Shown here piece by piece: positions 36,806 to 63,794 of a stretch of DNA of 64,000 nt (the first letter of the stretch is position 1; each line of letters opens with the position of its first letter). This DNA comes from Siphonodentalium dalli (taxonomy: Eukaryota; Mollusca; Scaphopoda; Gadilida; Siphonodentaliidae). The notes beneath the pieces are model-generated. The model was not told the origin of the DNA, searched no databases, and saw nothing but the letters and a program-made list of their open reading frames with translations. Made by a program: the position numbers and the translations under genes. The stretch lies in assembly GCA_032622095.1 (NCBI GenBank), contig CP136061.1, positions 250,925,582 through 250,989,581 of the forward strand. The letters run 5' to 3'.

Positions 36806-36922
36806 ATGGATAGTCAACCCTCGATAGAAACAGTTTATCAAGCGCTACACGCTTTATATAGCAACCCAGACGCGCTTGGAAAAGAGAAAGCATCTGTTTG
36901 GCTCGGCGAACTTCAGAAATCG
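36806..36922 (+). CDS. TNPO3: TNPO3 exon 1 (residues 1-39)
   Basis: It starts [18 protein letters not shown] and ends [10 protein letters not shown], with donor GTAAGA in phase 0. This matches the N-terminal helix and the WLGELQ motif of transportin-3, so the first in-frame ATG is taken as the start. Confidence 0.95.
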
Positions 36923-42900: not shown

Positions 42901-45900
42901 GACTAAATCCTGAAAAGTTACCCATAATTCTGCTGAGGTTAAGGAGTCGATTAATTAGAGCATTACTGTATGAAACAATGTGTAATTAAAAACAAAAATT
43001 CAAGTACAGAATTCCTCATGTATTTTTTCAGTCTCTAAGAGATTCTCTGGTAACCCACGGTCAGAAAATAACGGCTGCGACAGATCAAGCTATCGTAACA
43101 CAGGTAAGTTATTATTAGTATCCCACGGTCAGAAAATAACGGCTGCAACAGATCAAGCTATCGTAACACAGGTAAGTTAGTATTAATATCCTACGGTCAG
43201 AAAATAACGGCTGCGACAGATCAAGCTATTGTTACACAGGTAAGTTAGTATTAATATCCCACGATCAGAAAATAACGGCTGCGACAGATCAAGCTACTGT
43301 ATAATTTTCTCTTGCAATCACAGTTTTTGAGGGTGCAAATAATTACACATACATGTAGTCAACTTTCATACTGGCCATTGTATCAGATAACTTTTTTGAT
43401 CAAATCCACACCCCATAATTTCTTCTTGCGACTTTTAGATTAGTAAGCCAATGAGGGACATATTTCCAGCTGAATTCTGGAGGAAATCAATGACCACAGG
43501 TAGGTCTCGGGGACAAAGAAACATCCGCCAAAATTAACTTCAACATAAGGCCATGCTATGTTAATTTGCCGTTTCTCAAACTCGTCGCACTGTGATGAAA
43601 CCCTGCGTGTGCAACCTATTTATTTGTGTTCAATCTGTCAGGGAAAAATTGTCTGAGATATCAATTAGTTATCAACTAACTTTTATGGACATCTATTCAG
43701 GTAATAATTGACATTGGCAACTTAAATTACATTCAAAGCCAGCTGATGCAGCCTGGGTGGAATCATGGTTGCTGGAAATTATTATCGAAATCCACCAATA
43801 AATAATGTAATAATGTGCCATTACTTTAATAATAATATAGACAAGTATGGAAACTGGGCAATTCAGAGTCAACTGGACTCTCGCTACCACCGCTTGTTTC
43901 AAAGTCCTATTTCAGCCTGTCATTTGCAGAATGAGGTCCCCGGAGGATGAATTTAGTGCAGCTATCCTGCATAACAGGCTAGCATCACTAAATTCACCCT
44001 CTGGGGACCTCAATCTGGATGGCCTCATCTGCTGTGGGAGACATAGACTCAGATTAAAGTTCCCAAATGGTGAATATTGTGATGTACACCCATTGGGAAC
44101 CTCGATTATGCAATGTGTCGTCTGCCAATTTGGGATATAGAGATACTAAACTAAAAAAGAAATAGAATCTATGTGAAAAGTTTCTATAGAAATTTGATAA
44201 TAAAGATGTACCAATTGTAAAAAATATACTTTCACTCAATCAATTAGATATCTCTCTTGACCATAACACTGATATTACAACATTATTTGTCGATTTTTGC
44301 GACAATACTTACTTTGAATTCCCAACAGAACTGAATTAAAAAATTTGATGAGTAGCATCCTAGTCACAGGCTATAATTAGAAGCATGGGTTGGTTATGAC
44401 GTTACATCTTGGATGGCGACTCTCTCACAGACAAGCTTTCCATACTTGTCTATTAAATTTAATAAAGTAATGGGGTATTTATCGTGTCTATATCCAGGGT
44501 TTCCACCAGGCCGGCTGCGGGTCCGTCGCCCGGACCCATTCCCCCTGCCGATCTTTGCCATGAAATCCCGCTCATACACAAATAAATGACGTTATTAAAA
44601 ACTTATTCAGTCTTGTCTGTCTTGGCAGGCTATATATGATATCTAACCTTAGTTTCATTAATAATGACCAAATGGAATCGACACAGTCCATCTTCAGAAA
44701 AAAAAAATAACAGCATGAACAAACCATAAATAGTGACACCCCACACGTGATTGGTGGGGAATTCCCTATCAGGGGAGATATCATTGGTTCAATTTACTTC
44801 AGAGTATGGGAACGTGGATCATAAAAACTGCCTCATTTATTATCTTGACGTGAATATTGACGAGGCGTTTGGACTAATTTATTCATCATTATTCCAACTT
44901 TCATGTGTATAATTTGAGGCATGAGGAAACACACAAATATCGTATCATTTATAGTAATATAAAATTTCGACTTGGCTTACTGTTGTTTTAGGGCAATGGA
45001 TCGTTAATTTAGTGGTTGCCTCATTGTCGCGAACTGAAGCATGAAAACGCTTGGGCTAATGGCTATCATCATAAAAGAATCTTTGTGCAACATACACAAG
45101 TTCACGGCTTCGCGTCAATGCCCCATTAAAGAATAACACGCTGACCATGCATGCCCTCATTCAGAGTAAGAGTTTGTCTAATGCTCGTTCCCGAGCTGGC
45201 TTAGATAATCATTCCGATGTGATGTCATCCAGTAGAAGTTTGCAGACACGTGCAGTTAAATGTGTCACAATAATAGAGATAATCAAAGCTATTATACCGC
45301 AGTCATTGAATATCATGCACATGTCCACAATTATTAGTCCGGTCAAGGACGCCCAATGTTTTGCTGCTCTTTTGCAGTTGAATTATCAGATACTAATACA
45401 TATAATTTGATATAAATGTGTGAGACAGGGAATAAAATAAAGACACACAGACACAATGAGAATGGGTTTGTTTATTTCTTTTTTTTTATATCGGATTTAT
45501 CATCTTTTTAGATTTAGTTTGCGCCGGCATTTTGTCTTGTTGCTTACCTGTGATCGCCGTTTGTTTCTCAAAATCCGGATGAAAAATGCCCCTCATGACA
45601 TACCGATCCATAAGTCGCAGGAAGTTTTTAATAAGGGAAATTGGGTTAGAAAGTTGCGACTTATAATTATACATCGGCCGGTACGGTAAATGGCGAAATT
45701 ACAGATAAATTGGTCTTCATATATTTAATTATTTACTGGGTTTCCCCCATAGCAGCTACCGGACCCATTCCCCCGACCGTAGCGGAAACCCTGCTATATC
45801 GTATAACTGATTGGGAGAAAGAGGGCTGGAACATAGGATACATGTTTTACTGGAATTTGCATCTGATATTTCCTTTTCTATGTCTGTTCTAGCTGAGTTT

Positions 45901-48900
45901 GGCGTTAGCTGATCTCTCTCTACAAATGACTTCTTGGAAGAACTCCCCGGTTGACATCATCACTAAGTAAGATTTATGTCTATATAAATGCTCTCTGGGA
46001 ATAACATAAAACTCTGTAAATCAATTATCATTAACAAGTACAGTAATGCTCTAATTAATCGACCCCTTAACCCTTTAGTCGGAAATATTGCTTGTTGCCA
46101 TTCATCGGAAAGCTCTCGCCGAGAGCTTTCCAATGAATGGCAACAAGCCATATTTCCGACTAAATCCTGAAAAGTTACCCATAATTCTGCTGTGGTTAAT
46201 TAGAGCATTACTGTACATGAACAAATATTTTGACTTTGTTCTTATTTTTATTGTTAATAACGAACCAATGATCAGAATTCACGTGTTAAAACCATTATTA
46301 TGTAAATATTACTGTTACAGTGGAATGATCGATAAAAGTCCAATTAGATAGTTTAATAAAACATTTAATGGTTAACATGGGAAAAGGTAAAAAGCATTGA
46401 AAAATATTCTAAAATTAAAATTCAGACTGAATATTTAAAGGCCCACTTAATTTTCGAGTCACCGAATAATTTTTTATAGTGCATTGATATACGGTTTTAA
46501 TAACAATCTATGCCATAAAATATGATTAAAATACTATAATAAAATCATTTCCCCCATTATGGCTCCCAGAATGCAACAGAATTCAAACTATACATGTAGT
46601 TTTATTTTCAATGGAAGGGGAATAACTGTATATCTAATAGGCTTGCAGAAACTTGAGCAAAGAACTCACATCGGTAACTTGACAAAAACAACATGTTCAC
46701 AGTTTATTACATCGATTAAGTTGAAAATACAATGTTTTGGAGCTTCCTCCTTCAAATGGTATATAATTTGGCGTATATTGTATATAATGTGATCAGGGGG
46801 TTCGAAAATTAAGTTGGCCTTTAAACTTACTACACTATGTACATTTGTTGACAAATCACTGTAACAGGTTTGTTTTCTTAACAATGGCTTCAACACACAA
46901 AATTTCTTTATCGGAGAACTATCAATACTGAATATAAGAAATAAGTTTATCTATTTCTCCATGTTCTTCTTAGCAGAGACCAGCCTACAGGGCTATGGCA
47001 CAGAAGACGCATTACTATTGTTAGATAATTTATACAAGATCCATTGATGATCTCTTATTTGTATGATGTTTTCGTTTCGTTATGACTACCAATTTAAGTG
47101 TTTTCCGAATTGATCTGTATCTTCACTCTTGATACACTCGTGATAATGATTTGATTCGAGAATCGATGCATTTTCAAATCTATAGCCTGATTTCATTTCA
47201 GATTCGATTCCAAATGAAAGACCCTGAACACAGGGCAGGGCCCTAGGTGCACTCTCACTCAAACATATTGTCTTTCTACACTAAAACCATAATAAGAAGT
47301 ATAATATGTTTCATAAATTAGTCTGAAGCCCTGGATAGATTTTTAACGGACATAAATTAGTCTGAAGCCCTGGATAGATTTTTAACGGACATAAATTAGT
47401 CTGAAGCCCTGGATAGATTTTTAACGGACATGGCTCATTCGAACATCCATATTTTGTCTACGTAATTTGGAGGGACAGAAACGATAGGTTGATAAAGGTG
47501 GACAATATTGATATAACGGTTTCATATACTCTGAAAAATACTTGGCAAAGTCACAGCCATTTTCAAGCCGTTTACAATTTTCACCAGAAGTCAGATATTA
47601 AAACGCTCTTTATTTCTGCTATATCAGGAATAGACTAACACAGAACACTATTTTCTGTACCATGTCATGCACATGGCTGTTTTTTGTTTGGGACCCAAAC
47701 ACAGTATTCATATTTCATTTCTTCAATATGTCTTTTTGGGTGACAGAAAGCTCATAAAATGTTGTTCAGATATTTATCAACCTATATCGATACCGGGAAA
47801 AATTAAAAAGTGGATAATATTATGTGTATTTCAAGCACAAACTGCCATGTGGCTTTAACCCTTTACCCAACAGAACGGCCAAAACCGGCCAAATAAAGCT
47901 TCAACAGCCTAAAATATCTTTGGTCTGTCTCAATAACACCATACAAATATGGATATCATTGGAACCGGCTCATTGACCATATTGTGATGGTTACAGTTAT
48001 GCCCTGTGCCTATGCATTCTCTTATATATGCGAGTCGACCATAGGTCGCCTCGCATATATAACAGAATGCATTGGCCTAAAAAAAATCTTTTTTTTAACA
48101 CTTTTTACCATTTTTTCTTACATTCTTTAACAATTTTATAATTTTTAATGTGTTAAGCCAATGCATTCTCTTATATATGCGAGGCGACCTATGGTCGACT
48201 CGCATATATAAGAGAATGCATTGGCACAGGGCCCTTCTGTTGGGTAAAGGGTTAACAATGTAAATATCAAGTTATTGGAATTTTTCCACTCAACAAACAA
48301 ATACAACTTATATGAATGATATTTTATCGGTATATCACTTAAACTCATAACTAATTCTATTTCTAAATTTTACTCATTGCAGTATTTACCAGAATGTTTA
48401 TGCTACAACTCCCATAGGGAGCCTCGCATATATAAGAGGATTCATTCGCCTAACATTATTTACCTTGACATTTTAAACCAGTGCATTTTCTTATATATGT
48501 GCACATATAAGAGAATACACTGGCACAGGATCTTTAATACTGCACCAGCGGCAATCTCGTCACTGGAGGGTTATTGATAATGAAAAGAAGAACTCCTTCC
48601 TTCTCATCTTCTTCTTGATTATAGTGGTTTAAGAAGCTTTATATAACATTCCAGCTGTACCAACAGCGAACGTCTTCCATATCTTTAATGCTGATGAATT
48701 TGGCGTTATTTTTTCAGATTAGGAACTAACTTGGAGCAACTGCCATTTCTGCTAGAGGTTTTACATGTCATGCCAGAAGAAGTGAGTAAACATTCTTCTA
48801 CTTTCTTAATACAGTAATGCTCTAAATAATCGAATCCTTAATCACAGTGGAATTATGGGTAATTTGTCAGGATGTATATGGAAATATGGCTTGTTGCCAT

Positions 48901-51900
48901 TCATCGGAAAGCTCTCACTGAGAGCTTTCTGATGAATGGCAACAAGCCATATTTCCGACTAAATCCTGAAAAATTACCCATAATTCTGCTATGGTTAAGG
49001 AGTCGATTATTTAGACCATTACAGTACTTTACAGACTTCAGGAAGAAAAGCTTATCTCAGGTTTTCTTTTTCCAATCTTCTGTGATACATCGCATGATGC
49101 TGTCAAAATTTGGGCTAAATCGGATATATGGGTAAAAAGATATAAACGCTCGAAAATCATGATATAGTTACACACATGGGTTTTACATACATCTATCCTC
49201 AAAGTAATTGACTTAAAAAACTGGGTAATGGCGGTATTATCAGTGGTATAATGTATCCACAGCGGTAATCGGCCATGGGTGGAGTTTATAATTCAACAGC
49301 TGAAACAATGTCGGCAACTTCAAAGTCGTGTAAGTTCACAACGTGCTACATTGTGGGTCACTCGACTGGATGATTACAATGAAGACCAATCAAGTCACAT
49401 TCACAAAAAGTGCAGTGATTTCTTAGTATCATATTTACTGTTGTGATTGTGACATTTCTGTTTGAAATATTGCTTTTAATTGCTTTAAATCCAGGATTCA
49501 TCTCGGTTTTGATGCGGTAATCTTTATGCGGTGTTGGTGGTTACCGCAGTATTAATAGGGTGATACCACATATAGGCGGTCAATTTCTTTTAAGGATAGC
49601 TGTATATAGATTGATAATCGGAGTACACAGCCATGTTTGGTGTTCTCACCATGTTTTAATAATTGTTTGTTTTATGTTGCAGATTAATAGCCGCTCATTG
49701 AGGCTTGGTGCAAATAGGAGAAATGAACTTGTGGAAGAATTCAAAAGTTGCTCTGCAATAATACTTCAACTCCTTGTAAGTTCAATATTGTATTAACACC
49801 GGGATTGTCAACCCAAAATAAGCCAAAATCTAAACATAAACATAGATAACCCTGTAAAATGATAAACATGATCGGGAGCTGCACTGGTGCAGGATTAAAG
49901 ATCCTCTGTGCCAGTGCATTCTCTTATATATGTATATATATACAACAGAATGCACTGGCTTTCAAGGACAAGGTAAATATTGTTAGACGATTGTATTCTC
50001 TTATATATATATATATATATATAAGAATGCATTGGCACATGGTTTTCGCAAAATTTCAGGAAGCTCCAGTCATAAATGGGTTAACCCTTTCTTTTCATAA
50101 CTCTTTCTATACTAAATGGATTCACCCATTCAGTTATAAAAGTATACATTGGAATGGTCTATTAACCCCATTCTATGATAAATAGCATATATTATTCATC
50201 TGCTGGCATGTTCAGGAAATGAATGCAGAGGACAGATAGTAGAAAGTATCCTATTCCTTGGTGTGGAAAAGTTCAGATAATACAGTAATGCCCTAAATAA
50301 TCGACTCCTTAACCACAGCAGAATTATGGGTAATTTTTCAGGATTTAGTCGGAAATATGGCTTGTTGCCATTCATCAGAAAGCTCTCAATGAGAGCTTTC
50401 CGATGAATGGCAACAAGCCATATTTCTGACTAAATCCTGAAAAATTACCCATAATTCTGCTGTGGTTAAGGAGTTGATTATTTAGGGCAATACTGTTCAA
50501 CAAACAACCTATAGGGATAACTATAAATGAGTATTTAGTAAAGAGATTATTATTCATTTGGAGGGGTTTTCAGGAACAGTAAGCCGATGGCAGATTATAC
50601 AAGTACTGAAGGAGGCCTATTGGATGGACTGACCTTCCCAAGAGATGGGGGCGATTGCTCTCGCACCCGCACTCACTCATCATTTTCAATTCATTGCTGC
50701 TAAAAGTTGCACTCATCCCTCTTGTCAAAATGCTTATATATTTTGAACTTTTATTTGTTACTAGCTGGGGTACCCGGCGTTGCTTGGATAAAGAAGATTG
50801 GAAACAAATTGAAGTGTTTTGACATGAATTTACTCAATTTCAAAGAGCTTCTTTGTACACCACATTGGTGGTCTTCCCTTCTGCTGCATGATGAATAAGT
50901 TTTGTGATGATCCAACCATCGGGCACCCAACGTAGAACTGGTAATGTGAGTCATGATATGGTATGGATAAAGGGCTTATGCTATTCGAGGCGATGTGCGA
51001 CATTGAGTGAGGTTTCTGTATATTAACAATAAAGAGCGTTCCCGGTTCATCTATTCCTGATATGGTATGAATAAAGAGTGTTCTGCTCACTCATGTGCAG
51101 CAACTTGTTAACAACATTCCGTTTTTAACCCTTTACCCAACAAACCGGCCAAATAAAGCTTCAACAGCCTAAAATATCTTCGGTCTGTCTCAATAGAACC
51201 ATACAAATATGGATATCATTGGAACCGGCTCCTTGACCACATTGTGATAGTTACAGTTAGCCCTGTGCCAAGGCATTCTCTTATATATGCGAGTCGACCA
51301 TAGGTCGCCTCGCATATATAAGAGAATGCATTGGCCTAAAAAAAATCTTTTTTTTAACACTTTTTACCATTTTTTCTTACATTCTTTAACAATTTTATAA
51401 TTTTTAATGTGTTAAGCCAATGCATTCTCTTATATATGCGAGGCGACCTATGGTCGACTAGCATATATAAGAGAATGCATTGGCACAGGGCCGTTCTGTT
51501 GGGTAAAGGGTTAAGATATCTGATGTCAACGGGACCTATCTAATAAGATTCTCCAGATAAAGTTACCCTTATAAACAAATAATCAGCTCAGAGCAGGCCT
51601 GCAGGTTTCTAAATTAGGTGTAACATATTTTTCGTTCACCTGGTTTGTGCTTAGGTAACCCATACCATACATGTAGGTTAGCAGGAGAGTTACCCAAACT
51701 GTTATAATCACGACAATTGGTATTATTAACTACAGATGGGCAACTCATTGGAGTACCATAATAAATTTGAATATCTCATTTTGGGACTTGTTGAGTAAAA
51801 ATTAAGGTGAGAATTAGTTATCGCGAGACCTGCATTTATAAAACTTTGGCACAACCTGTTTTTCGTTCGTGGCATTTTCATTTTAGATAACTTCCAGGCG

Positions 51901-54900: not shown

Positions 54901-57900
54901 TCAATAGGTCATTTGCTGAACTTATTATCTGATGAATTTTGCATGACAACTTATAATTTGAGTTATGGCAGCCAACGTCCTTTCACGCTACATGACAAGT
55001 TATTTGTTCGTAGGATGTGATGGCAGCCAGCGTCCTATCATGATATATGACAAGTTATTTATTTTGTAGGATGTCATGGCAGCGAGCGTCCTATCGCATA
55101 CACTGTTTCAGAGTGTGGTCTCATTGGTCGATATGTATCATCTGGCTGTTGCTCAAGAGGATTTCGACAAGTATGTATACACTACTTCCATACAAGCCTG
55201 CAAATTGTGTACCTGTAATTTGCAGAATGAGCTCCCCAAAGGGTGAATTTAGTGATGATACCCTGCACAGCGGGCTAGCATCACCAAATTTACCCTCTGG
55301 GGATTATTAGTTTTGGACGTTTCGCACTATAGTACAAAATATTTTGTCTGAAGTTCATTGTCGATCACATGCTAAAGGCAGGTGATTAGTGTTAATGAGT
55401 GTAAGCCGTGGTCGGGCTTACTGAGTGAAATAATGTTCTGGGCCACTTTAGCCGATCTGGTCTCGCAAGGTGCACGTATCAAATTAAAATTAAAAGAATA
55501 TGTGGATATTTCAAATAAATTGAGCTCACGTATATGTCTTTGTACGAAGGTCGTGTATACAAAGCAGAGCATTTTGAACAGACATTTCCATCATGAGTAG
55601 TCATCATATATTATAAGCAACAGTTATAATATGTCCGTTCGATAAATGACCGAGGTGTATATATTTTATTATGTAGATTTTTCTACATTTTTGAATTTAG
55701 TGTATTGCAGGAATTAAATTATTACGAATTTAACAAATCTTATCACGTAGGATGCATAGTAATCATGTTTATATACGCATATAATGTAACGTTGATCAAT
55801 AGTATATGTATGATGTACTCCATGTATGCAGGCATGAGTATTCAAAGCTTTCAGAGTTGTTTTCTTCACAGAGTGGTTTTATCTCTGTTTTTATGCCTGA
55901 ATGCCTTCTGTAAACGGCTGTCCGTTCAATCAAGTTTTGTGAGAATCTTGAATTGAGACTATATTTACCAACTGGGTATACTGTATTAACACATAAGAGA
56001 GTATGAGGTTAATAGCTATTGGCACGGGCATGAAAAGGATTCTGCCATGAAGCTAATATAACAAAAACATTTTCGTCGTGAATTTCCTTAGCTAAAAGCA
56101 TAATTTTGTGTCCAACAGCCATTGCTGGAATACCTATTTACACCTTGTCACCAATAAAGCCAGCGGCTATATGCAAAAAATCCATTGTGTTTGTACTTAG
56201 TCTAGAGCAGACCTCATTCTGCTTACACCTCATCTTCTGTGTAGAATCTATAATTCTTAATTTAACATTGTTTTTAGTTACTTTTTATAAGCCCATTTGA
56301 AAAAACGGTCGTATTATGTAAATGAGTTGTCCGTCCGCCCGTTGTCTGTCTGTCCGCTTTGGTTCTGGATGATAACTTTAGATTGAATCCAGTGAACTGA
56401 ACCAAATTTGGTACGTTAGTTTACCACACCAAAATACATATCAAGTTGGAATATGGGTTTCGTCCGCATGATTTTGACTGAGTTATGCCCCTTTTTCAAC
56501 TTAGATTTTACCTGATTTGCAGTATATGGATGATAACTTTAGATTGATTCGAGTGAACTGAACCAAATTTGGTATATTAGTTTACCACCCCAAAATACAG
56601 ATCAAGTTCGAATATGAGTTTCGTCCACATGATTTTGACTGAGTTATGTCCCTTTTTCGTCTTTGATTTTACCTGATTTGCGGTCTCCGGATGATAAATT
56701 TAGATTGAATCAAGTGAACTGAACCAAATTTGGTATATTAGTTTACCATCCCAAAATACTGATCAAGTTCGAATATGGGTTTTGTCCGCATGATTTTGAC
56801 TGAGTTATGCCCCTTTTCGACTTATATTTTACCTGATATGCAGTTTCCAGATGATAACTTTTGATCGAATTGAGTGAACAGAACCAAATCTGGTATACAG
56901 ATCAAGTTCAAATATTGGTTCTGTCTACATGCTCCACTCTACTCCAGAAATGGGCGTATTATGCCACGCCCCGACGGCATGCTTTTGTTTTCTTCTGGGA
57001 AATTTCTATATCCCCAACTTGCAGAAGATAAAATGCATAATTGAAATGACTATTAAATGGGTGAACATCACCAAATTCAACTGGGGAACTTCAATCTGAT
57101 CCTAGGTCTCCCATAGCAGTTGAGGCCTAAGCAGAATGAGGTTCCCAGAGGGTAAATTTGGTGACTAGCTGACTGTGCAGGATAGCACCACTAAATTCAC
57201 CCTCTGGGGACCTCATTCTGCAAATGACTAGATGCTATTTGCAGGCTTGATTGACAAGTAGTTCCCTAGGAAATGTTCAGACAATAACTTCAACAAACGA
57301 GCGTATATTGGAAAAATTATCTGAACATTTCTCACCAAGGAATAGAAATTCTTCAGCACTTGTATTATCTTTTTGTCATACTGTCGTCTGCTAGTTTATC
57401 CCAAACACCCCTCCAAATGAATAATAGAACATTCCTATGTATAATTTTATAACCAGGTGGGACAATATATTTAGCACAGAAAGGGTTAATTGAACTTAGG
57501 TGGAGTATACCTCGTAGTGAAGATGGATGTGAAATGTATTTTTTAATTTTTCAGAGTGATGAACTATTGTCGAATATTCTCTGACATGGCTGAGTCATTT
57601 CTGCCAGTTATCATCGCCACACCTCATCAGGTAAGCCATGCCTCATCAGGTAAGCCACGCCTCATCAAGTAAGCCACGCCTAATCAGGTAAGCCACGCCT
57701 CATCTCTGGAACTAACTGTTATCATTGCCATACCGCATCTGGTAATCAACGCCTCATCAGGTAAGCCACGCCTCATCAGGTAAGCCACGCTTCATCAGGT
57801 TAGCCACACCTCATCAGGTAAGCCACGCCTCATCAGGTAAGCCACGCCTCATCAGGTAAGCCACGCCTCATCAGGTAAGCCACGCCTCATCAGGTAAGCC

Positions 57901-60900
57901 ACGCCTCATCAGGTAAGCCACGCCTCATCAGGTAAGCCACGCATCATCAGGTAAGCCACGCCTCATCAGGTAAGCCACGCTTCATCAGGTTAGCCACACC
58001 TCATCAGGTAAGCCACGCCTCATCAGGTAAGCCACGCCTCATCAGGTAAGCCACGCCTCATCAGGTAAGCCACGTCTCATCAGGTAAGCCACGCCTCATC
58101 AGGTAAGCCACGCCTCATCAGGTAATCAACGCCTCATCAGGTAAGCCACGCCTCATCAGGTAAGCCACGCCTCATCAGGTTAGCCACACCTCATCAGGTA
58201 ATCAACGTCTCATCAGGTAATCAACGCCTCATCAGGTAATCAACGTCTCATCAGGTAATCAACGCCTCATCAGGTAATCAACGCCTCATCAGGTAAGCCA
58301 CGTCTCATCAGGTTAGCCACACCTCATCAGTAGAACTAACTGTTATCATTGCCACACCTCATTAGGTGTGACTTCAGTGGAACTAACTGTATTATACTTG
58401 GCCCCTGCGTATACTTGGTTTTTGATTGAATCAAATTTCTAATCAAACAGTTCTCGAAAATTATTCGAAAATGAATTGAATATTGAACAATCTTGGTTGC
58501 TGAATTTATTACATTGTTATCATATCACTTATTTTCTCTTTTATTTGTTTTGCAGGGACTTGGCGATTTCCATAGCTTGGATTTACTTTTAACCTGTGTT
58601 GGACACCATTCATATGAGGTATGAGTATTCTAACTCACATTCACTACATTAAATGGGAATAAAATAAAGTAACACCATTTAAGACTCATTTGAGTTTTTA
58701 AAAAACACGAGCTTTCGGCTATCTAGTAGCCTTTATCAAGTATGAATTGAACAAACAGTGAAAAGTCATTGACGTTGAAAGTGTCCATCACGATGACGTT
58801 CATAACAAGAGTGACGGAAAGCAACTACGTTGCGGCTGCTCCCGAGCGCCGATTTCCCCGGAAATTATGCAGTACAGTGTAATGTGAGAGAAAACCATAG
58901 TCCCTGTTTAACCCTTTCCGGATGGTATCCACGTAGGTTATTAATTTCAACCCTACTGTTTTCCTTGCTCTCAGTCGTTTCAATCCTCCTCTGAGAACTC
59001 TGACCTCGAGGTCTTCCTCTGAATGGTGAGAAGAGTTAAAATGTTCTCCCCCAGGCACGAATATATTTTCTGATGTTATGTCATGCCGGTGTCCATTCAT
59101 GCGGCATCTGAGGGTTTGGCCCGTCTCTCCGATGTAGATATTAAAGCCCGGGACACTGTCTGCACGTGTAGAGTATAAACAACACCTTCAGAGCTGCACG
59201 AGAAATACCCACTCGGTGTGATAGATTTCCCTGTACTGTTGGTCAGAGTTCCATTTGTCACAGAAGAGCATGTTGCACAATTCCATATTCCGCACGGGTA
59301 TGTTCCGTTTTGTTGGTTGTTATGCAAGTTCTGTGCTCTAACTAGACTCTTTCGGAGGTTCAGAAGTTGTCGATATGACATTAAAGGTAATTCGGGGAAA
59401 ATATCACGCAGTTTGCAACATGCTCTTCTGTGACAAATGGAACTCTGACCCGAGTGAGTCTTCATGGGACGTGTCAGAAGCAGCTTTATTTATTATGAGT
59501 GCTGTTGCCAAGAACATTTTACCATCAGTTTTTAAACCTTCCAAGACTGGAGCTTTCTGACATGTTGCGAAAATCCTGTGCCAATGCATTCTCTTATATA
59601 TGGGAGTCTCCCATAGGGAGCCTCGCATATATAAGAGAATAAATTTGCCTAACATTATTTACCTTGATGTTGTAAGCCAGTGTATTCTGTTATATGGGAG
59701 ACTTGCATATATAAGATAATGCGTGGCGCAGGAGCTTTAATGCGGCACAGTGCAGCTCTCGTCATGATAAGGTTAAGGGGGGTAAATACTATATGCGTCC
59801 CACGAATTCACATCCCCATAAAATGGCCTCTTGGAGAGAAAACATGAAAAATAATGCCAACGAAATAAAAGCATTCACAGTATTGTAATTTTGTTTCAGG
59901 CTGCAGAGGTTACCTTTAATTTCTGGTATAGATTATCAGAAGAATTATATAATAAGAATAACACAGAGCTGAACGAAGTATTCAAACCATATGTTACCAG
60001 ACTAATATTTGCCCTGTGCCGGCATAGTCAGATGGAAACAGATACAGTAAGTTAACCCTTTATATGATTCTAGTAAATGAACAATGTATTTAAACCATAC
60101 ATTACCAGACTAATATTTGCCCTGTGTTGGCATAGTCAGATTGATACTGATACAGTAAGTTAATCCTTTTATATACTACCAGTAATTGCAGTAAATGAAT
60201 GATGTATTCAAACCATACGTTACCAGACCAATATTTTTCCTATGTCGGCATAATCAGATAGATACTGATACAGTAAGTTATTGGATTTTCGTTAGTTTAA
60301 TGTTGATAGTTGCATCTCGAATCGAGTAGTAAATATTTATAATTGAGCATAGTTCAGACGATGTTTTCTATGGAGAGGTACAGTCAATTCGCTTGAGATT
60401 TTCGGCGATATTAGTAGAATGCTACATTCCTCCAGTTGACATAGCATCTGTATACTATTAAGTTTTCAGTTTTATGCACCTGAACAAGACTTGTTCAACA
60501 AGTCCATACTATGTTTTTAATTAAACAATACAAGCGCCTGAGAAAAAAATTGTCATTGAACTAACGAAAATGCATTTAATAAAACTGATACCTACGTGTG
60601 TACCTCGCTGCAAGCTGCTGATGGAAAATCGGTATTTTACTTACATTTTCTATGGGATAACTACTCATCAATGATGGTTTAGTATAGAAAGGGTTAAACT
60701 AATTATCTGAACATTTACTATGGATAACTACTCATCAATGATGCTTTAGTATAGAGAGGGCTAAAGTTATTATCTGAACATTTAATATGGGATAACCACT
60801 CATCAATGATGCTTTAGTATAGAAAGGGTTAAACTTATTATCTGAACATTTCCTATGGTGTAGCAACTCCTCAATGATGCTTTAGTATAGAGAGGGTTAA

Positions 60901-63794
60901 ACTTATTATCTGAACATTTCCTATGGGATAACTACTTGTCAATGGTTCTTCAGTTTAGAAGGGGTTAAACTTATTATCTGAACATTTCATATGGGATAAC
61001 TACTCATCAATGATGTGTTGGTATGGAAATGGTTAAACTTATTATCTGAACACTTCCTATGGATAACTACTCAACAATGATGCTTTAGTAAAGAAAGGAT
61101 TAAACTTATTATCTGAACATTTCCTATGCGATAACTACTCGTCGATGATGCATTAGTAAAGAAAGGGTTAAACTTATTATTTGAACATTTTCTATGGGAT
61201 AACTACTCATCATTGATGCTTTAGTATAGAGAGGGTTAAACTTATTGCTGAACATTTCTGGTGCTGGGACGGTTGTCTGGATATCCGGTTATGATTTGGT
61301 TATGCGTGTCAACCGGTTGGAGGAGGCCACAACCGGATAACCGCACTATTGATAACAATCATACTATCATCGTAGTACTGCGTGTAAATGTTGCCGAAAT
61401 CATTTACGGAAGTTTATGTAACTAGAGTAAGTTATAAGATGCGATTTGGACAGTTGATTGTGTAATCATATACCCCACAACACATGCCCATTTGATCACC
61501 GGCAGCTTTTCTAGACATGAAACCAACAACTACACTCTGTGTCAGTCTGCGAATCACTTGCTACACATTCGATGCCAATTTCCTTCGGAGGCCTTACATG
61601 AAAGGTTGCGAGTCCATGACGTTCCGGCTGCACGTGCACCATGGCATATATCAAAGCAATCAAGTCTAGACTTTTACTACGTCATCAATAGTCTGTCTGT
61701 TTTGTTGAAACTGTCCCCCCTTTGTCATTATCATTACTTAACTTTATTTCCTAAATACTGGCTGGAGCTTGTGTAATGAATCACGACGATTTAATTTTGT
61801 TTGAATTTGTTTATTAAATAATTGAAGTAACATCATGAAGTCACTGTCATTAGGACATACCTACCTATACCCAAACACTAGTAAACATTACTAAACAACA
61901 GTATACCTACCTTCAGTACCTTGTAGTATAACATGTTTCAGCTAATCATGCCCGGGATATACACGAGGAAGGAACTATATTTCGTCGCGGAATGTTTTGC
62001 AAACAAGCGTTGTTTATGTGGAACTCCCGTAAACATCAATATACTAGCGACCACAAGCAATTGCTCTATCACAAATCATCAGGAAGTGGGAATTATTGTG
62101 CACTACTAATATATATTATATTTTAGTTTGTTTGGGCTCAAAACTTAATTAATTTATACACATATACCACTATTTGATCGCCGTAACGGGACCGCATTGT
62201 ACGACCAAGACATCGTTTCTGATCGTATGTATATCGACGTTTCCGGGACGCGTAATCAACACTTGTTTTGCGATATAGTGACCAGTGTATTCAATCTCGT
62301 ACTTAGGGTAATGATGGTCGTGGTTATCCGGTTGTGATTAGGTTAATGCCCGCGGTTAACCGGCTAGGAAAAAAACCCAACCGTCCCAGCACTAAACATT
62401 TTCTATGGGATAACTACTCGTCAATGATGCTTTAGTATAGAGAGGGTTAAACATTTTATGTTAACATTTTCTATGGGATAACTACTCATCAATGATGCTT
62501 TAGTACAGAGAGGGTTAAACTTATTATCTGAACATTTACTATGGATAACTACTCATCAATGATGCTTTAGTATAGAAAGGATTAAACTTATTATCTGAAC
62601 ATTTCCTATGCGTTAACTACTCATCGATAATGCGTTAGTATGGAAAGGGTTAAACTTATTATCTGAACATTTTCTATGGAATAACTACTCATCAATGATG
62701 GTTTAGTATAGAAAGGGTTAAACTAATTATCTGAACATTTACTATGGATAACTACTCATCAATGATGATGGTGACCAGTGTATTCAATCTCGTACTTAGG
62801 GTAATGATGGTCGTGGTTATCCGGTTGTGATTAGGTTAATGCCCGCGGTTAACCGGCTAGGAAAAAAACCCAACCGTCCCAGCACTAAACATTTTCTATG
62901 GAATAACTACTGATGCTTTGGTATAGAAAGGGTCAAACTTATTATCTGAACATTTCCTATGGGATAACTACTCATCAACGATGCTTTAGTATAGAATGTG
63001 TTAATAAGGTAACTACTCACCAGCGATGCTTTAGTATAGATGGGTTAATAAGGTAACTACTCACCAGTGATGCTTTAGTATAGATGGGTTAATAAGGTAA
63101 CTACTCGTCAATGATGCTTTAGTATAGAGAGGGTTAAAACAGAATTTCTACATTGTTTTTGCAGGATTCTACAGAAGACACCAGTGATTTTACAGAATTC
63201 AGGAAGCGAGTCACAGAATTAGTTAAAGATGTTGTTTTTATTGTTGGTTCGTCTTCATGTTTTAAACAGGTACTGCTTTAAATTGCCCTTTTCATGTTTT
63301 AAACAGGTACTGCTTTAAACTGCCCTTTTCATGTTTTAAACAGGCACTGCTTTAAATTGCCCTTTTCATATTTTAAACAGGTACTGTTTTAAATTGCCCT
63401 TTTCATGTTTTAAACATGTACTGCTTTAAATTGTTGTCTTCATGTTTTAAACAGTACTGCTTTAAATTGGAATTGTAATATATCCATATATAATTTATGA
63501 ATAATTCTTAAATGAACATTCCTCTGGGGACCTCATTCTGCATGACCTTTTTATAAAACCCAATTTCAAATTTTTATCCATTTTTTATACTTGTGACCCT
63601 GTCAGAAAACAAATAGCTAGCAATCTGTTGCAATTTATGATTATTCTAGCCATGTTGTTTGATTTCTTTAAACTTTTCAAATTGTTTTATCTTCAGATGT
63701 ATGAAATTCTACAGAATCAACCGAGTGGGTCTTCATGGGACGTGTCAGAAGCAGCTTTATTTATTATGAGTGCTGTTGCCAAGAACATTTTACC
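36806..63794 (+). CDS. TNPO3: Transportin-3, N-terminal half, 15 exons (3' partial)
   Basis: Transportin-3 is an importin-beta family receptor that binds RS domains of SR splicing factors in the cytoplasm and releases them in the nucleus on RanGTP binding. The fifteen exons listed below join without a phase error into about 454 residues. Vertebrate TNPO3 has about 920, so roughly half is present and the rest lies past 64000. Family landmarks run in the expected order: VYQALHALY and WLGELQKS (importin-beta N-terminal region, residues 10-39), [13 protein letters not shown] (57-69), SLRDSL (84-89), [17 protein letters not shown] (about 156-172), [11 protein letters not shown] (about 200-210), [13 protein letters not shown] (about 243-255), [14 protein letters not shown] (about 295-308), GLGDF (318-322), [12 protein letters not shown] (about 344-355), [17 protein letters not shown] (about 438-454). 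HEAT-type helices fit throughout. Introns range from about 0.4 kb to 3.8 kb. Confidence 0.95.
37626..38567. mobile_element. Non-autonomous hAT-like transposon in intron 1
   Basis: 942 bp with termini TAGTGCTGGGCAGTAT and CGGTATACCG...CCGCCCAGCACTA. Perfect 8-bp target duplications CAATAACA lie at 37618-37625 and 38568-38575. Subterminal CGGTATAC motifs recur near both ends. There is no transposase frame. The perfect duplication suggests a relatively young insertion. Confidence 0.9.
39140..39525. mobile_element. Relative of the 19287 element, without expansion
   Basis: The order GTGAAGTACATTA, then TAAGAAATATA, then CCAAAAGTTCCCAGG, then TGGAATATGATCTCTACAGG matches 19640-20160 but carries only one copy of the 50-bp unit and no TTAA MITE. 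The junction GTGAAGTACATTATTAAGG is close to the empty form of the site filled at 19652-20051. Confidence 0.65.
40735..40824 (+). CDS. TNPO3: TNPO3 exon 2 (residues 40-69)
   Basis: Acceptor TTTTCACAG, donor GTGAGT, 90 bp, phase 0 to phase 0. The product [16 protein letters not shown] continues into [14 protein letters not shown], the SCYFAAQT motif shared by transportin-3 proteins. Confidence 0.95.
40905..41240. repeat. CCGTCCGTCC-type interspersed repeat
   Basis: It begins GGGGGTATATAGGAATAATC, passes through TCTAGCCGTCCGTCC and includes a block ending CTTGGCACATATATT. Related CCGTCCGTCC repeats sit at 27850, 53065 and 56325. It is non-coding. Confidence 0.55.
41427..41610. mobile_element. 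pogo/Tc1-like fold-back MITE, intron 2
   Basis: A palindrome from CAGTAATTGACC to its inverse ending GGAATTACTG, with TA on both sides (41425-41426, 41611-41612). The arms share GGAAATATGGCTTGTTGCCA and the apex loop is only a few bases (CATCGAAAGCTCGATG). Confidence 0.85.
41937..41978 (+). CDS. TNPO3: TNPO3 exon 3 (residues 70-83)
   Basis: A 42-bp microexon with acceptor CTTTTACAG and donor GTAATA, encoding [14 protein letters not shown]. The FHELP.ESH core corresponds to the FYELPTDSH segment of vertebrate TNPO3. The phase is 0 on both sides. Confidence 0.95.
41995..42260. repeat. Interspersed repeat plus fold-back MITE, intron 3
   Basis: 41995-42090 (AACCCTCTCTATACCAAATG, CCCATTCAGTTATAAAAG) matches 50085-50165 and the start at 27430. 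42145-42245 is a palindromic CTCATTCTGC-family MITE around a CTAATCTGCACAGCAGGCTAG core. Confidence 0.65.
42496..42782. repeat. 48-bp tandem repeat, six copies, intron 3
   Basis: The unit GTATAATCGTAAGTTTCCCC, GTGTGCTGAAACAGTGGTGA, TGTATGTC is repeated six times with a few substitutions. Minus-strand frames through it are by-products. The pogo-like MITE at 42783 is inserted at the TA of the last GATGTA. Confidence 0.9.
42783..42968. mobile_element. pogo/Tc1-like fold-back MITE, intron 3
   Basis: The termini CAGTAATGCTC and GAGCATTACTG are flanked by TA (42781-42782, 42969-42970). One arm has lost the TCAGGATTTAG segment, so the hairpin is asymmetrical. Confidence 0.85.
43032..43103 (+). CDS. 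TNPO3: TNPO3 exon 4 (residues 84-107)
   Basis: Acceptor TTTTTTCAG, donor GTAAGT, 72 bp, phase 0. The product [16 protein letters not shown] continues TDQAIVTQ, equivalent to the SLRDSLLTHIQ...VIVTQ segment of vertebrate TNPO3. Its last 50 bases plus donor are repeated downstream. Confidence 0.95.
43054..43304. repeat. Tandem copies of the exon 4 3' end and donor
   Basis: Four copies, the first being exon 4 itself, of a unit of about 66 bp that runs from CCACGGTCAGAAAATAACGG through CAAGCTATCGTAACACAG to GTAAGTTAGTATTAATAT. Donors occur at 43104, 43170 and 43237. The fourth copy breaks off at CAAGCTACTGTATAA, before its donor. The extra copies lack the exon's own acceptor. Confidence 0.9.
43918..44115. 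mobile_element. CTCATTCTGC-family fold-back MITE, intron 4
   Basis: TTTGCAGAATGAGGTCCCCG and ACCCTCTGGGGACCTCAATC are inverted around TATCCTGCATAACAGGCTAG. The extended right arm (GGCCTCATCTGCTGTGGGAG, TTCCCAAATGGTGAA, CCCATTGGGAACCTCGATTA) matches 57000-57130 inverted. Confidence 0.65.
44390..45892. other. TNPO3 intron 4 right part, unclassified repeat
   Basis: An approximate inverted pair, CAGGGTTTCCACCAGGCCGG near 44497 and CGTAGCGGAAACCCTG near 45777, brackets about 1.3 kb and may mark an element with CAGGGTTTCC ends. Both ends also share a CGGACCCATTCCCC block. Frames inside (about 45147-45410 and 45456-45689) show no domain I recognise. Confidence 0.4.
45893..45966 (+). CDS. TNPO3: TNPO3 exon 5 (residues 108-131)
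   Basis: Acceptor TCTGTTCTAG, donor GTAAGA, 74 bp, phase 0 in and phase 2 out. The product [18 protein letters not shown] then PVDIIT matches the LALAIADLALQMPSWK segment of vertebrate TNPO3. Confidence 0.95.
46041..46213. mobile_element. pogo/Tc1-like fold-back MITE, intron 5
   Basis: CAGTAATGCTCTAATTAATC and GAGCATTACTG are bounded by TA (46039-46040, 46214-46215). Arms of unequal length reflect a deletion in the left arm between CCTTAACC and TTTAGTCGG. Confidence 0.85.
46277..46905. mobile_element. Unclassified inverted-repeat element, intron 5
   Basis: An end of about 40 bp (GTGTTAAAACCATTATTATG ... CTGTTACAGTG) is inverted at 46857-46900 (CACTGTAACAGG ... CAATGGCTTCAACACAC). Inner blocks with AGGCCCACTTAATTTTCGAG and TTCGAAAATTAAGTTGGCC are also inverted and match 42285-42350. 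It has no coding frame. Confidence 0.55.
47305..47432. repeat. 39-bp tandem repeat, three copies, intron 5
   Basis: CATAAATTAGTCTGAAGCCC plus TGGATAGATTTTTAACGGA is repeated three times with almost no change, which indicates a recent duplication. Confidence 0.9.
47859..48251. mobile_element. piggyBac-like TTAA MITE, intron 5
   Basis: 393 bp, ends CCCTTTACCCAACA and TGTTGGGTAAAGGG, flanked by TTAA (47855-47858, 48252-48255). Two long hairpins are present, and the orientation is the same as at 19656 and 51129. It is very close in sequence to 19656. Confidence 0.9.
48390..48577. mobile_element. Second-family TTAA MITE, ends eroded, intron 5
   Basis: The hairpin blocks CTCCCATAGGGAGCCTC and ATATATAAGAG, then GCCTAACATTATTTACCTTG, identify the family of 10448 and 59536. 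The terminal CCCTTT and the left TTAA are not preserved. Confidence 0.6.
48718..48781 (+). CDS. TNPO3: TNPO3 exon 6 (residues 132-153)
   Basis: Acceptor TTTTTTCAG, donor GTGAGT, 64 bp, phase 2 in and phase 0 out. The product is [21 protein letters not shown]. The [12 protein letters not shown] core is the LPFLLEILTVLPEE helix pair of TNPO3. Confidence 0.95.
48812..49024. mobile_element. pogo/Tc1-like fold-back MITE, intron 6
   Basis: It begins CAGTAATGCTCTAAATAATC after TA at 48810-48811. The right terminus is degraded (ACCATTACAG before TA at 49025-49026). It is the most diverged of the six copies, with GGATGTATATGG where other arms have GGATTTAGTCGG. Confidence 0.8.
49683..49775 (+). CDS. 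TNPO3: TNPO3 exon 7 (residues 154-184)
   Basis: Acceptor TATGTTGCAG, donor GTAAGT, 93 bp, phase 0. The product [19 protein letters not shown] then [12 protein letters not shown] carries the SLR.GANRR motif that is highly conserved in TNPO3. Confidence 0.96.
49862..50083. mobile_element. Second-family TTAA MITE, degraded, intron 7
   Basis: GGGAGCTGCACTGGTGCAGG near the left and AGCTCCAGTCATAAATGGG before TTAA on the right match the 10448 family. Both hairpin loops have been replaced by TA repeats (TATATGTATATATATA and ten TA steps near 50004). Confidence 0.7.
50085..50280. repeat. Interspersed repeat, intron 7
   Basis: TTCTATACTAAATGG, CCCATTCAGTTATAAAAG and a TTATTCATCTGC...TTCAGGAA run match 41995-42090 and 3105-3222. 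The trailing GTTCAGATAATA matches the 68-bp array unit inverted. Confidence 0.55.
50283..50495. mobile_element. pogo/Tc1-like fold-back MITE, intron 7
   Basis: CAGTAATGCCCTAAATAATC after TA (50281-50282) and the inverse ending GGGCAATACTG. The right TA is changed to TT. The arms are otherwise almost perfect, with a GAAAGCTCTCAATGAGAGC apex. Confidence 0.85.
50761..52010. repeat. Unclassified interspersed element split by a TTAA MITE
   Basis: It starts ACTAGCTGGGGTACCCGGCG and ends GGGCTTTATTAGTATAGAT. The two short end motifs look like the ends of a single retroposed element. It contains a direct GGTATGGATAAAGGGCTTA/GATATGGTATGAATAAAGAG repeat and is interrupted by the MITE at 51129-51510. 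No frame with a domain was found. Confidence 0.4.
51129..51510. mobile_element. piggyBac-like TTAA MITE, intron 7
   Basis: 382 bp with ends CCCTTTACCCAACA and TGTTGGGTAAAGGG between TTAA at 51125-51128 and 51511-51514. It lacks the short CCAAAACCGG repeat present in the 19656 and 47859 copies. Confidence 0.9.
52140..52810. repeat. Intron 7 right part: inverted and interspersed repeats
   Basis: 52158-52212 is a local palindrome (AAATGTTCAGATAATAAGTT and AACTTATTATCTGAACATTT). 52484-52590 is a second (CATGGTTTATTAACGGCC and GGCCGTTAATAAACCAT) enclosing paired GATTAACAGCCC/GGGCTGTTAATC. 52600-52800 belongs to the GAATAATAGGCC...CCATTTAGTA repeat. Confidence 0.6.
52886..53032 (+). CDS. TNPO3: TNPO3 exon 8 (residues 185-233)
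   Basis: Acceptor TTTGTTTTCAG, donor GTAGGT, 147 bp, phase 0. It encodes [20 protein letters not shown], then [20 protein letters not shown], then [16 protein letters not shown] is the family hallmark of this helix. Confidence 0.96.
53060..53260. repeat. CCGTCCGTCC-type repeat, intron 8
   Basis: CATCCGTCCGTCCGTCAGTG is followed by ATATCTCAAACATGGGTTAT and GAAATTTGGTATGCAGGTTT. It is the inverse of 15600-15780. Overlapping + frames spliced onto exon 8 are read-through by-products. Confidence 0.65.
53261..54346. other. TNPO3 intron 8 remainder
   Basis: No exon seen. A hairpin at 54050-54092 pairs TAGGTCTGGACC with GATCCAGACCTAAT, and the flanking ACTCGTTTTGTAAATT is directly repeated at about 54037 and 54098, which suggests a small inserted palindrome. 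The minus-strand frame at 54117-54443 has no domain. Confidence 0.5.
54347..54421 (+). CDS. TNPO3: TNPO3 exon 9 (residues 234-258)
   Basis: Acceptor TGTCCTGACAG, donor GTAAGT, 75 bp, phase 0. The product is [16 protein letters not shown] then [22 protein letters not shown] is almost unchanged from vertebrate TNPO3. Nearly the whole exon plus its donor is tandemly repeated. Confidence 0.96.
54360..54800. repeat. 74-bp tandem copies of exon 9 with donor, six copies
   Basis: The first copy is exon 9; five almost identical copies follow at exactly 74-bp spacing. Donors lie at 54422, 54496, 54570, 54644 and 54718 (GTAAGT), with a weakened sixth at 54792 (GTAAAT). Each unit joins GTAAGTAAAGTT to GTCCATCCATGCTACATGAG. 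The unit lacks the exon's acceptor and, at 74 bp, would shift the frame if retained. Confidence 0.97.
54965..55110. repeat. 56-bp copies of the exon 10 acceptor region
   Basis: ATGGCAGCCAACGTCC at 54965, ATGGCAGCCAGCGTCC at 55020 and ATGGCAGCGAGCGTCC at 55076 (real exon 10) are spaced 55-56 bp. Each is linked by ATGACAAGTTATTT and TCGTAG/TTGTAG. A decoy acceptor TAG|GATGTGA lies at 55013/55014. Here the duplicated border is the 3' splice site rather than the donor. Confidence 0.88.
55070..55170 (+). CDS. TNPO3: TNPO3 exon 10 (residues 259-291)
   Basis: Acceptor ATTTTGTAG, donor GTATGT, 101 bp, phase 0 in and phase 2 out. The product [16 protein letters not shown] then [17 protein letters not shown] aligns with the ETAYHMAVAREDLDK region of vertebrate TNPO3. 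Confidence 0.94.
55215..55305. mobile_element. CTCATTCTGC-family fold-back MITE, intron 10
   Basis: TTTGCAGAATGAGCTCCCCA and TTACCCTCTGGGGA are inverted around GATACCCTGCACAGCGGGCT. The right arm is truncated before the CTCATTCTGC terminus. Confidence 0.7.
55306..56210. other. TNPO3 intron 10, middle part
   Basis: No exon or recognisable repeat was seen. Overlapping short frames at 55382-55600 and 55705-55956 have no domain and no splice sites compatible with TNPO3 phase 2. Confidence 0.45.
56310..56990. repeat. About 160-bp tandem repeat, four copies, intron 10
   Basis: GATGATAACTTTAGATTGAA, GTGAACTGAACCAAATTTGG, TTTACCACCCCAAAATAC and GACTGAGTTATGCCCC recur in order near 56367, 56528, 56690 and 56849. 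The array follows a CCGTCCGCCC motif and is a multimerised interspersed repeat. Confidence 0.8.
57000..57230. mobile_element. CTCATTCTGC-family fold-back MITE, extended form
   Basis: The long left part (CTTGCAGAAGATAAAATGCA, GGTCTCCCATAGCAGTTGAG) joins the palindromic core GAATGAGGTTCCCAGAGGG ... CCCTCTGGGGACCTCATTCT. The same extended form lies inverted at 43918-44115 and 17700-18030. Confidence 0.7.
57240..57490. repeat. Interspersed repeat, intron 10
   Basis: AATGTTCAGACAATAACTTC, CCTCCAAATGAATAATAG and TTTAGCACAGAAAGGGTTAA match, inverted or direct, the units at 3105, 50085, 52600 and the 68-bp array at 60640. Confidence 0.55.
57555..57630 (+). CDS. TNPO3: TNPO3 exon 11 (residues 292-317)
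   Basis: Acceptor ATTTTTCAG, donor GTAAGC, 76 bp, phase 2 in and phase 0 out. The split codon gives K, then [15 protein letters not shown] and [16 protein letters not shown] is the conserved helix in TNPO3. The last bases of the exon seed a minisatellite. Confidence 0.95.
57622..58345. repeat. 19-bp minisatellite of the exon 11 end and donor
   Basis: The unit CCTCATCAG|GTAAGCCACG joins the last nine bases of exon 11 to the first ten of intron 11. It is repeated about 35 times with few changes (GTAATCAACG, GTTAGCCACA). Longer exon-derived pieces (TGTTATCATTGCCACACCTC and close variants) recur at about 57720, 58330 and 58385, showing more than one round of duplication. Most units keep a consensus CAG|GTAAG. 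Confidence 0.96.
58556..58618 (+). CDS. TNPO3: TNPO3 exon 12 (residues 318-338)
   Basis: Acceptor TTGTTTTGCAG, donor GTATGA, 63 bp, phase 0. The product [20 protein letters not shown] plus E matches the [20 protein letters not shown] segment of vertebrate TNPO3. Confidence 0.96.
58690..59449 (-). pseudogene. Penelope-like retroelement 3' fragment (GIY-YIG)
   Basis: Read on the minus strand, three shifted frames give a Penelope-like C terminus: [20 protein letters not shown], then CGIWNCATC, then [13 protein letters not shown], then [20 protein letters not shown] and HRHDI, then [18 protein letters not shown] and a helical tail with GLNRD. The cysteine cluster, YIGETG and the distal H..HS define the GIY-YIG endonuclease of this class. 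Reverse transcriptase is absent and frames shift near 59160. It ends upstream against the displaced copy of exon 15. Confidence 0.75.
59450..59535 (+). pseudogene. TNPO3: Displaced copy of TNPO3 exon 15
   Basis: From CCGAGTGAGTCTTCATGGG to GAACATTTTACC this matches exon 15 (63718-63794) with one base change (GGG to GAG). It lacks the exon's acceptor and first seven codons, and the donor ACC|GTAAGT has become ACCATCAGT, so it cannot be spliced like the original. It continues directly into the MITE that also flanks the genuine exon. Confidence 0.92.
59536..59772. mobile_element. Second-family TTAA MITE next to the displaced exon
   Basis: TTAA at 59532-59535 and 59773-59776 bracket the family with CCAAGACTGGAGC on the left and CGTCATGATAAGG on the right. 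The loops CTCCCATAGGGAG are preserved. The same element lies 11 bp downstream of the genuine exon 15 donor, from 63807. Confidence 0.8.
59900..60046 (+). CDS. TNPO3: TNPO3 exon 13 (residues 339-387)
   Basis: Acceptor TTTGTTTCAG, donor GTAAGT, 147 bp, phase 0. It encodes [20 protein letters not shown], then [20 protein letters not shown], then [16 protein letters not shown] is diagnostic for this region of TNPO3. Confidence 0.96.
59978..60285. repeat. Three copies of the exon 13 3' end and donor
   Basis: The genuine exon end is followed by two diverged copies (TATTTAAACCATACATTACC, GACTGATACAGTAAGT and relatives). Donors lie at 60047, 60155 and 60273, spaced 108 and 118 bp. The copies carry exon-like text (TTGCCCTGTGTTGGCATAGT) but no acceptor. 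Divergence is higher than at exon 9, so this array is older. Confidence 0.9.
60640..61258. repeat. 68-bp minisatellite, left block, intron 13
   Basis: The unit GGGATAACTACTCATCAATG, ATGCTTTAGTATAGAAAGGG, TTAAACTTATTATCTGAACA, TTTCCTAT is repeated about nine times. The unit resembles one end of the dispersed repeat at 54835 and 57240, which suggests it grew from such an insertion. Confidence 0.92.
61259..62394. mobile_element. Non-autonomous hAT-like transposon inside the 68-bp array
   Basis: 1136 bp between TGGTGCTGGGACGGTTG and the inverse ending CCGTCCCAGCACTA. The target duplications are AACATTTC (61251-61258) and AACATTTT (62395-62402), both from the 68-bp unit. Subterminal AACCGGTTG / GGTTAACCGGC motifs relate it to the element at 12580. 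No transposase is seen; the frame at 61492-61776 has no domain. Confidence 0.88.
62395..63140. repeat. 68-bp minisatellite, right block, intron 13
   Basis: The array resumes after the hAT element with about ten units, several shortened to about 45 bp near the end (GGTTAATAAGGTAACTACTC). At 62772-62886 a unit carries an extra copy of the hAT right end (GTGACCAGTGTATTC to CCGTCCCAGCACTA). Confidence 0.92.
63165..63269 (+). CDS. TNPO3: TNPO3 exon 14 (residues 388-422)
   Basis: Acceptor GTTTTTGCAG, donor GTACTG, 105 bp, phase 0. The product [20 protein letters not shown] then [15 protein letters not shown] aligns with the [23 protein letters not shown] region. The donor is weaker than at the other exons. 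Confidence 0.95.
63251..63470. repeat. 37-bp tandem copies of the exon 14 end and donor
   Basis: Six units of TTCATGTTTTAAACAG|GTACTGCTTTAAATTGCCCTT lie at 37-bp spacing, with donor positions 63270, 63307, 63344 (GCACTG), 63381, 63418 (lost, CATGTA) and about 63454. The first unit is the genuine junction. Confidence 0.95.
63697..63794 (+). CDS. TNPO3: TNPO3 exon 15 (residues 423-454), last in window
   Basis: Acceptor TTATCTTCAG, donor GTAAGT, 98 bp, phase 0 in and phase 2 out. The product [18 protein letters not shown] then [15 protein letters not shown] matches the [20 protein letters not shown] segment of vertebrate TNPO3. The gene continues beyond 64000. Confidence 0.95.

What the first reader, a model, noticed from the sequence alone, without database searches (positions are those of the whole stretch)
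43032..63470. Six TNPO3 exon borders have been tandemly copied with their splice sites
At exons 4, 9, 11, 13 and 14 the exon's 3' end and its 5' splice site form a tandem array. At exon 10 the acceptor border does. Unit lengths differ (about 66, 74, 19, 108-118, 37 and 56 bp) and the sequences are unrelated, so these are independent events. Six of about 29 visible borders is far more than chance if duplications fell at random in 27 kb. One explanation is that splice sites or R-loop or pause sites promote slippage. Another is that copies away from borders are lost while copies that keep one working donor are tolerated. A third is a regulatory role through competing donors.
Basis: partly seen in the sequence, partly recalled or inferred. 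Interest (0 to 1): 0.88.

Follow-up and report, generated by a model that had tools for sequence, protein, structure and literature searches.

The report
Tandemly copied splice borders in TNPO3
In this animal genome short DNA repeats have grown across the ends of many exons, copying the splice signal several times into the intron; the same thing is known from lancelet genes as "mirage" minisatellites, and here it is unusually frequent and falls in a curiously regular place just behind the splice donor.

Summary
The gene is TNPO3: a spliced 907-aa reading frame aligns end to end with human transportin-3. Five donor borders (exons 4, 9, 11, 13, 14) and one acceptor (exon 10) lie in unrelated tandem arrays. 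Beyond the window the gene has two more donor arrays (exons 22, 25) and an acceptor copy (exon 16). Among about 57 donors of other genes (chaperonin, myosin, exportin) four more donor arrays turned up, and two acceptor arrays.

The frame is intact only with the first donor copy; nearly all later copies add a frameshift or stop. One myosin array is present in two sister paralogs and absent from 21 others, so arrays are added to existing borders.

This is the "mirage" minisatellite already described in lancelet Adh, globin, troponin C and PGBD5 genes.

Outside the ascertained window, donors are hit about 5 times more often than unique intron sequence predicts, about 3 times after correcting for longer detectability of copies anchored in a conserved exon (P about 0.015). 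Acceptors show no clear excess. The unit is nearly always mostly exon plus only about 11 nt of intron (P about 0.001), which tolerance alone does not explain. A regulatory role has no support.

The parts
43032..43103 (+). TNPO3 exon 4; productive donor at 43104
   Evidence: spliced frame
43050..43301 (+). array over exon 4 donor: 68-bp unit (54 nt exon tail + 14 nt intron), 3.6 copies; donor copies at 43104, 43172, 43240 all cag|GTAAGT
54347..54421 (+). TNPO3 exon 9; productive donor at 54422
54359..54808 (+). array over exon 9 donor: 74-bp unit (63 exon + 11 intron), 6 near-identical copies with six donors
54961..55102 (+). array over exon 10 acceptor: 55-bp unit, about 2.5 copies; the last acceptor copy (exon starts 55070) gives the frame
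57607..58330 (+). array over exon 11 donor (exon 57555-57630): 19-bp unit (15 exon + 4 intron), about 38 copies, most keeping cag|GTAAGC
59970..60280 (+). array over exon 13 donor (exon 59900-60046): 108-118-bp unit (77 exon + 31 intron), 2.7 copies
63254..63469 (+). array over exon 14 donor (exon 63165-63269): 37-bp unit (16 exon + 21 intron), 5.9 copies
42497..42782 (.). unique intronic array in intron 3 (48 bp x5.9), an example of the intron background
36806..63794 (+). TNPO3 exons 1-15 (gene continues beyond the window to exon 26, ending at C1:251019531)

Best explanation
These are mirage-type minisatellites: local tandem duplications of about 20-110 bp that happened to span an exon border and then, in some cases, grew by unequal exchange or slippage. 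A duplication over a donor pushes the extra copies into the intron, so splicing at the first copy still gives the normal mRNA and the change is nearly neutral; a duplication over an acceptor works the same way with the last copy. Duplications wholly inside exons change the protein and are lost. A moderate mutational bias towards donor borders, with the second copy joined about 4-31 nt inside the intron, probably adds to this. Shown: the arrays, the frame, the spread to other genes, the excess and the short intronic part. Inferred: first-donor use in vivo, growth by slippage or exchange, near-neutrality, the mutational bias.
For: First donors and last acceptor give a 907-aa frame aligned end to end with human TNPO3. 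Almost all later donors lead to a frameshift or stop. Border arrays occur in other genes: CCT L073, L077, L080, an exon upstream in L061, MYH L029/L031, acceptors L059 and L074. The MYH array sits only in a sister pair (92/84 support), while 21 paralogs have a single donor at the same exon. Unit lengths 19-118 bp are mostly not multiples of 3, and copies differ in age or homogenisation (99% matches at exon 9, 83% at exons 10 and 13). Intron background is rich in arrays (10-17% of intron windows have a copy within 600 bp). Donor excess outside the window is 6 against 1.23 expected, 3-fold after the 1.6x detectability correction simulated (P 0.015). Same anatomy in lancelet genes, where splicing stays regular (PMC3087553; PMC3902484).
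Against: No RNA data, so use of the first donor is inferred. The sample is small (about 296 kb plus the window) and drawn from few gene families. The excess depends on which intronic arrays count: with transposon-borne arrays included, per-point coverage by first units rises to 7-8% and the excess largely goes. Pure tolerance does not predict that units are about 80% exon.
Confidence: 0.75

Rival explanations
1. Donor-directed duplication: something about the 5' splice site region (paused polymerase, R-loop over the exon tail, a nick, or nascent-RNA-templated repair) makes breaks or template switches a few nucleotides into the intron and re-copies the upstream exon tail.
For: Donors exceed the intron rate and acceptors do not clearly (11 against 4 in all; outside the window 6 against 3). 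Array starts pile up in the 100 bp before the donor (11) while 100-bp bins of the following 500 bp hold 0-1 each. Intronic part of units is short: median 11 nt, mean 0.21 of the unit, P 0.0003 uniform, 0.001 with anchoring, 0.002 outside the window only.
Against: Donor versus acceptor difference is not significant (Fisher P 0.10). Exon composition or uniqueness could draw duplications into exons in general, with only border-spanning ones surviving.
Confidence: 0.2
2. Plain tolerance: duplications fall evenly; those in exons are lost, those in introns and across borders stay; the apparent excess is ascertainment plus longer detectability of copies anchored to a conserved exon.
For: Anchoring alone gives 1.6x; the excess in unbiased exons after correction is only 3x for donors (P 0.015) and 2.3x for all borders (P 0.019); undetected transposons make the unique intron length too large.
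Against: Does not explain the short intronic part of donor units nor the spike of array starts at donors.
Confidence: 0.3
3. Regulation: spare donors compete for U1 or tune TNPO3 output through NMD isoforms.
For: Many copies keep strong donor scores (exon 9 all but one identical, exon 11 most at 10.9); stops follow in nearly all extended exons.
Against: Homogenisation explains kept scores; units, borders and copy numbers are unrelated between exons; paralogous MYH exons do without; lancelet mirages do not disturb splicing.
Confidence: 0.04
4. Assembly artefact.
For: Arrays are places where assemblies err; a lancelet mirage was mis-assembled in one draft (PMC3087553).
Against: Copies carry their own substitutions and indels, arrays are under 750 bp, contigs are chromosome-sized, and two myosin loci share one array.
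Confidence: 0.02

Closest known systems
Mirage minisatellites of lancelets (Adh3, globins BflGb6/BflGb9, troponin C, PGBD5)
   Same: Tandem repeats spanning exon-intron boundaries at either end, units 10-160 bp, copies of splice signals, normal coding sequence kept (PMC3087553; PMC3902484)
   Different: Here eight TNPO3 borders carry tandem arrays in one gene, donors lead acceptors, and units hold little intron. The species is not identified; a GFP search found nothing and 9 contigs with 2.2 Gb do not fit Branchiostoma lanceolatum (19 chromosomes, about 0.47 Gb, PMC11907188)
Intron gain or shift by tandem duplication (Rogers model; potato RdRp, vertebrate ATP2A1, Drosophila novel intron positions)
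   Same: Tandem duplication of a segment with splice signals (PMC4974935; PMC2891723)
   Different: No new intron arises here; existing introns get longer and keep their position
Ordinary intronic minisatellites
   Same: Unit sizes, copy numbers and homogenisation; intron 3 and others in the same gene hold such arrays
   Different: They do not include exon sequence or splice sites

Membership tests
Mirage minisatellite | tandem repeat unit contains both exon end and adjacent intron with splice site | tested here: met
Mirage minisatellite | one border copy gives the normal reading frame, the rest lie in the intron | tested here: met
Mirage minisatellite | regular splicing of the mRNA despite extra sites | not testable with these tools
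   no RNA reads
Mirage minisatellite | length instability between haplotypes or in somatic tissue | not testable with these tools
   one haplotype only; differing ages of arrays are compatible
Mirage minisatellite | host is a cephalochordate (the only group reported in the papers found; not a property of the structure itself) | tested here: inconclusive
   no GFP family match, but the tool warns that a null is not absence; genome size and contig number argue against Branchiostoma
Intron gain by tandem duplication | a new intron created out of the duplicated copies | tested here: not met
   the frame needs no intron inside the copies; each array lies at the edge of one existing intron

The most novel reading that the evidence does not exclude
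Donor splice sites are hotspots of a directed duplication in which the last 15-80 nt of the exon are re-copied a few nucleotides into the intron, for instance by template switching at a break or pause just behind the donor in transcribed germline DNA.
Probability: 0.2. Interest if true: 0.75.

Novelty: new member of a known kind. Interest (0 to 1): 0.5.

Why it matters
Border minisatellites are the raw material proposed for intron gain and intron shift. A genome where one gene carries at least eight tandem ones, and where sampled genes show them at up to about one in ten donors, would let their birth rate, loss and splicing effect be measured. The regular short intronic part gives a sharp, countable test of whether splice sites draw duplications.

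Tried and rejected
Array coverage alone was rejected as a test, because expanded and transposon-borne arrays inflate the intron background; I counted first units of unique arrays instead. TRF alone misses two-copy arrays such as L059, so a self-match scan was added. Exon 16, 17 and 20 acceptor signals: 16 is a separate copy 421 bp upstream, 17 a weak AT-rich match, 20 noise. My first junction measurement for exons 22 and 25 was wrong because of indels and was redone with gapped alignment. Attempts to name the species (GFP, molluscan hemocyanin, annelid linker families, paper searches) did not settle it.

Full report
What was checked. The window lies at C1:250925582-250989581 of an unnamed 2.2-Gb, 9-contig animal genome. 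I fetched 32 kb beyond the window, mapped 26 exons of the gene by tblastn and splice signals, and joined them. With the first donor of every donor array and the last acceptor of the exon 10 array the result is an uninterrupted 907-aa protein that aligns over its whole length with human transportin-3 (PDB 4c0p, 1084 bits), with no insert at any array border. So the gene name and the productive copies are well supported by sequence; real splicing was not observed.

More cases. Outside the window TNPO3 has two further donor arrays, exon 22 (81 bp, two copies) and exon 25 (86 bp, two copies, one with a deletion), and a copy of the exon 16 acceptor border 421 bp upstream, 94% alike and not in tandem. 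In 43 non-redundant exons of chaperonin, myosin and exportin genes from other places donor arrays occur in L029 (myosin, 67 bp), L073 (63 bp), L077 (39 bp) and L080 (53 bp), and acceptor arrays in L059 (55 bp) and L074 (83 bp). The exon before the L061 hit also has a donor array of 42 bp, left out of the rates because it was found through its array.

Age and polarity. The myosin array of L029 is shared only with L031, its sister in a tree of 23 paralogous 171-bp exons (92/84 support); the other 21 have one donor there. Arrays are therefore additions to existing borders. Copies in the six window arrays range from 83 to 99% alike, so they differ in age or in homogenisation.

Effect on the message. 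Splicing at a later donor would extend the exon by stretches that shift the frame or meet a stop in nearly all cases; the exceptions without a stop are the second copy at exon 9 (+74 nt) and the second and third at exon 11 (+19, +38 nt), which shift the frame, and a weak site at exon 22 (+24 nt). That fits use of the first donor and speaks against useful isoforms.

Is it more than chance? Introns of this genome are full of repeats: 10-17% of 52-bp intron windows have a copy within the next 600 bp. Many of these arrays travel with transposons. Counting only arrays not seen elsewhere in the sample and only their first unit, the chance that a given point is covered is 3.1% in TNPO3 introns and 1.5% in the other loci, on unique intron length. 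About 16 of the 57 'other' donors are myosin neighbour exons counted by eye. A simulation shows that a copy anchored to a conserved exon stays detectable 1.6 times longer than a purely intronic pair. With that factor donors are 3.0-fold over expectation (P 0.015), acceptors 1.5-fold (P 0.31). All donors together, window included, give 11 against 1.65. If transposon-borne arrays are counted as events, the excess mostly goes; undetected transposons act in the same direction. The excess is thus likely but not proven.

A regular joint. In the eleven donor arrays the second copy begins 4-31 nt inside the intron, median 11; the intronic part is on average 0.21 of the unit. If duplications covering a donor were placed evenly it would be 0.5 (P 0.0003), or 0.46 with anchoring (P 0.001); the six cases outside the window alone give P 0.002. 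Selection on the protein does not explain this, since a long intronic part is as harmless as a short one. Either exons are prone to duplication and only units that run over the border survive, or the joint is set by something just behind the donor. Acceptor arrays are too few to tell.

What it is. Tandem repeats over exon-intron boundaries were described in lancelet Adh3 and called mirages; they also occur in globin, troponin C and PGBD5 genes, at both kinds of border, with units of 10-160 bp, unstable length and normal splicing (PMC3087553; PMC3902484). The arrays here meet the sequence features of that kind. They are also the starting point assumed in models of intron gain by tandem duplication (PMC4974935; PMC2891723), but no intron was gained here. 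Whether the host is a lancelet could not be settled: no GFP match was found (weak), and the genome is about five times larger and has half the chromosomes of Branchiostoma lanceolatum (468 Mb, 19 chromosomes, PMC11907188).

Verdict. Real, of a known kind, unusually dense in this gene, probably near-neutral, with a modest and testable sign that donor borders attract duplications.

Noticed in passing
3225-7672 and 8065-9660: 38-bp satellite, 117 and 42 copies at 96-97% matches, split by about 400 bp; strong strand skew.
   Followed up: no
20127-21648: 50-bp array of 30 copies; a single related unit occurs at about 39480.
   Followed up: no
59465-59524: Copy of TNPO3 exon 15 end lying in intron 12, 4.2 kb upstream of the real exon, beside a perfect 37-nt inverted repeat (59241-59277 / 59414-59450).
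   Followed up: partly
23277-24164: 296-aa open frame with a weak match to the zinc-binding end of reverse transcriptases (zf-RVT, below cut-off), probably a non-LTR retrotransposon remnant.
   Followed up: partly
genome C4:158-292 Mb (loci L029-L051): About 20 muscle myosin heavy chain genes on one chromosome, several almost identical, a recent local expansion.
   Followed up: partly
L055/L056, L063/L064, L068/L069, L075/L076: Recent local duplicates of chaperonin genes (CCT, HSP60), tens to hundreds of kb apart.
   Followed up: no
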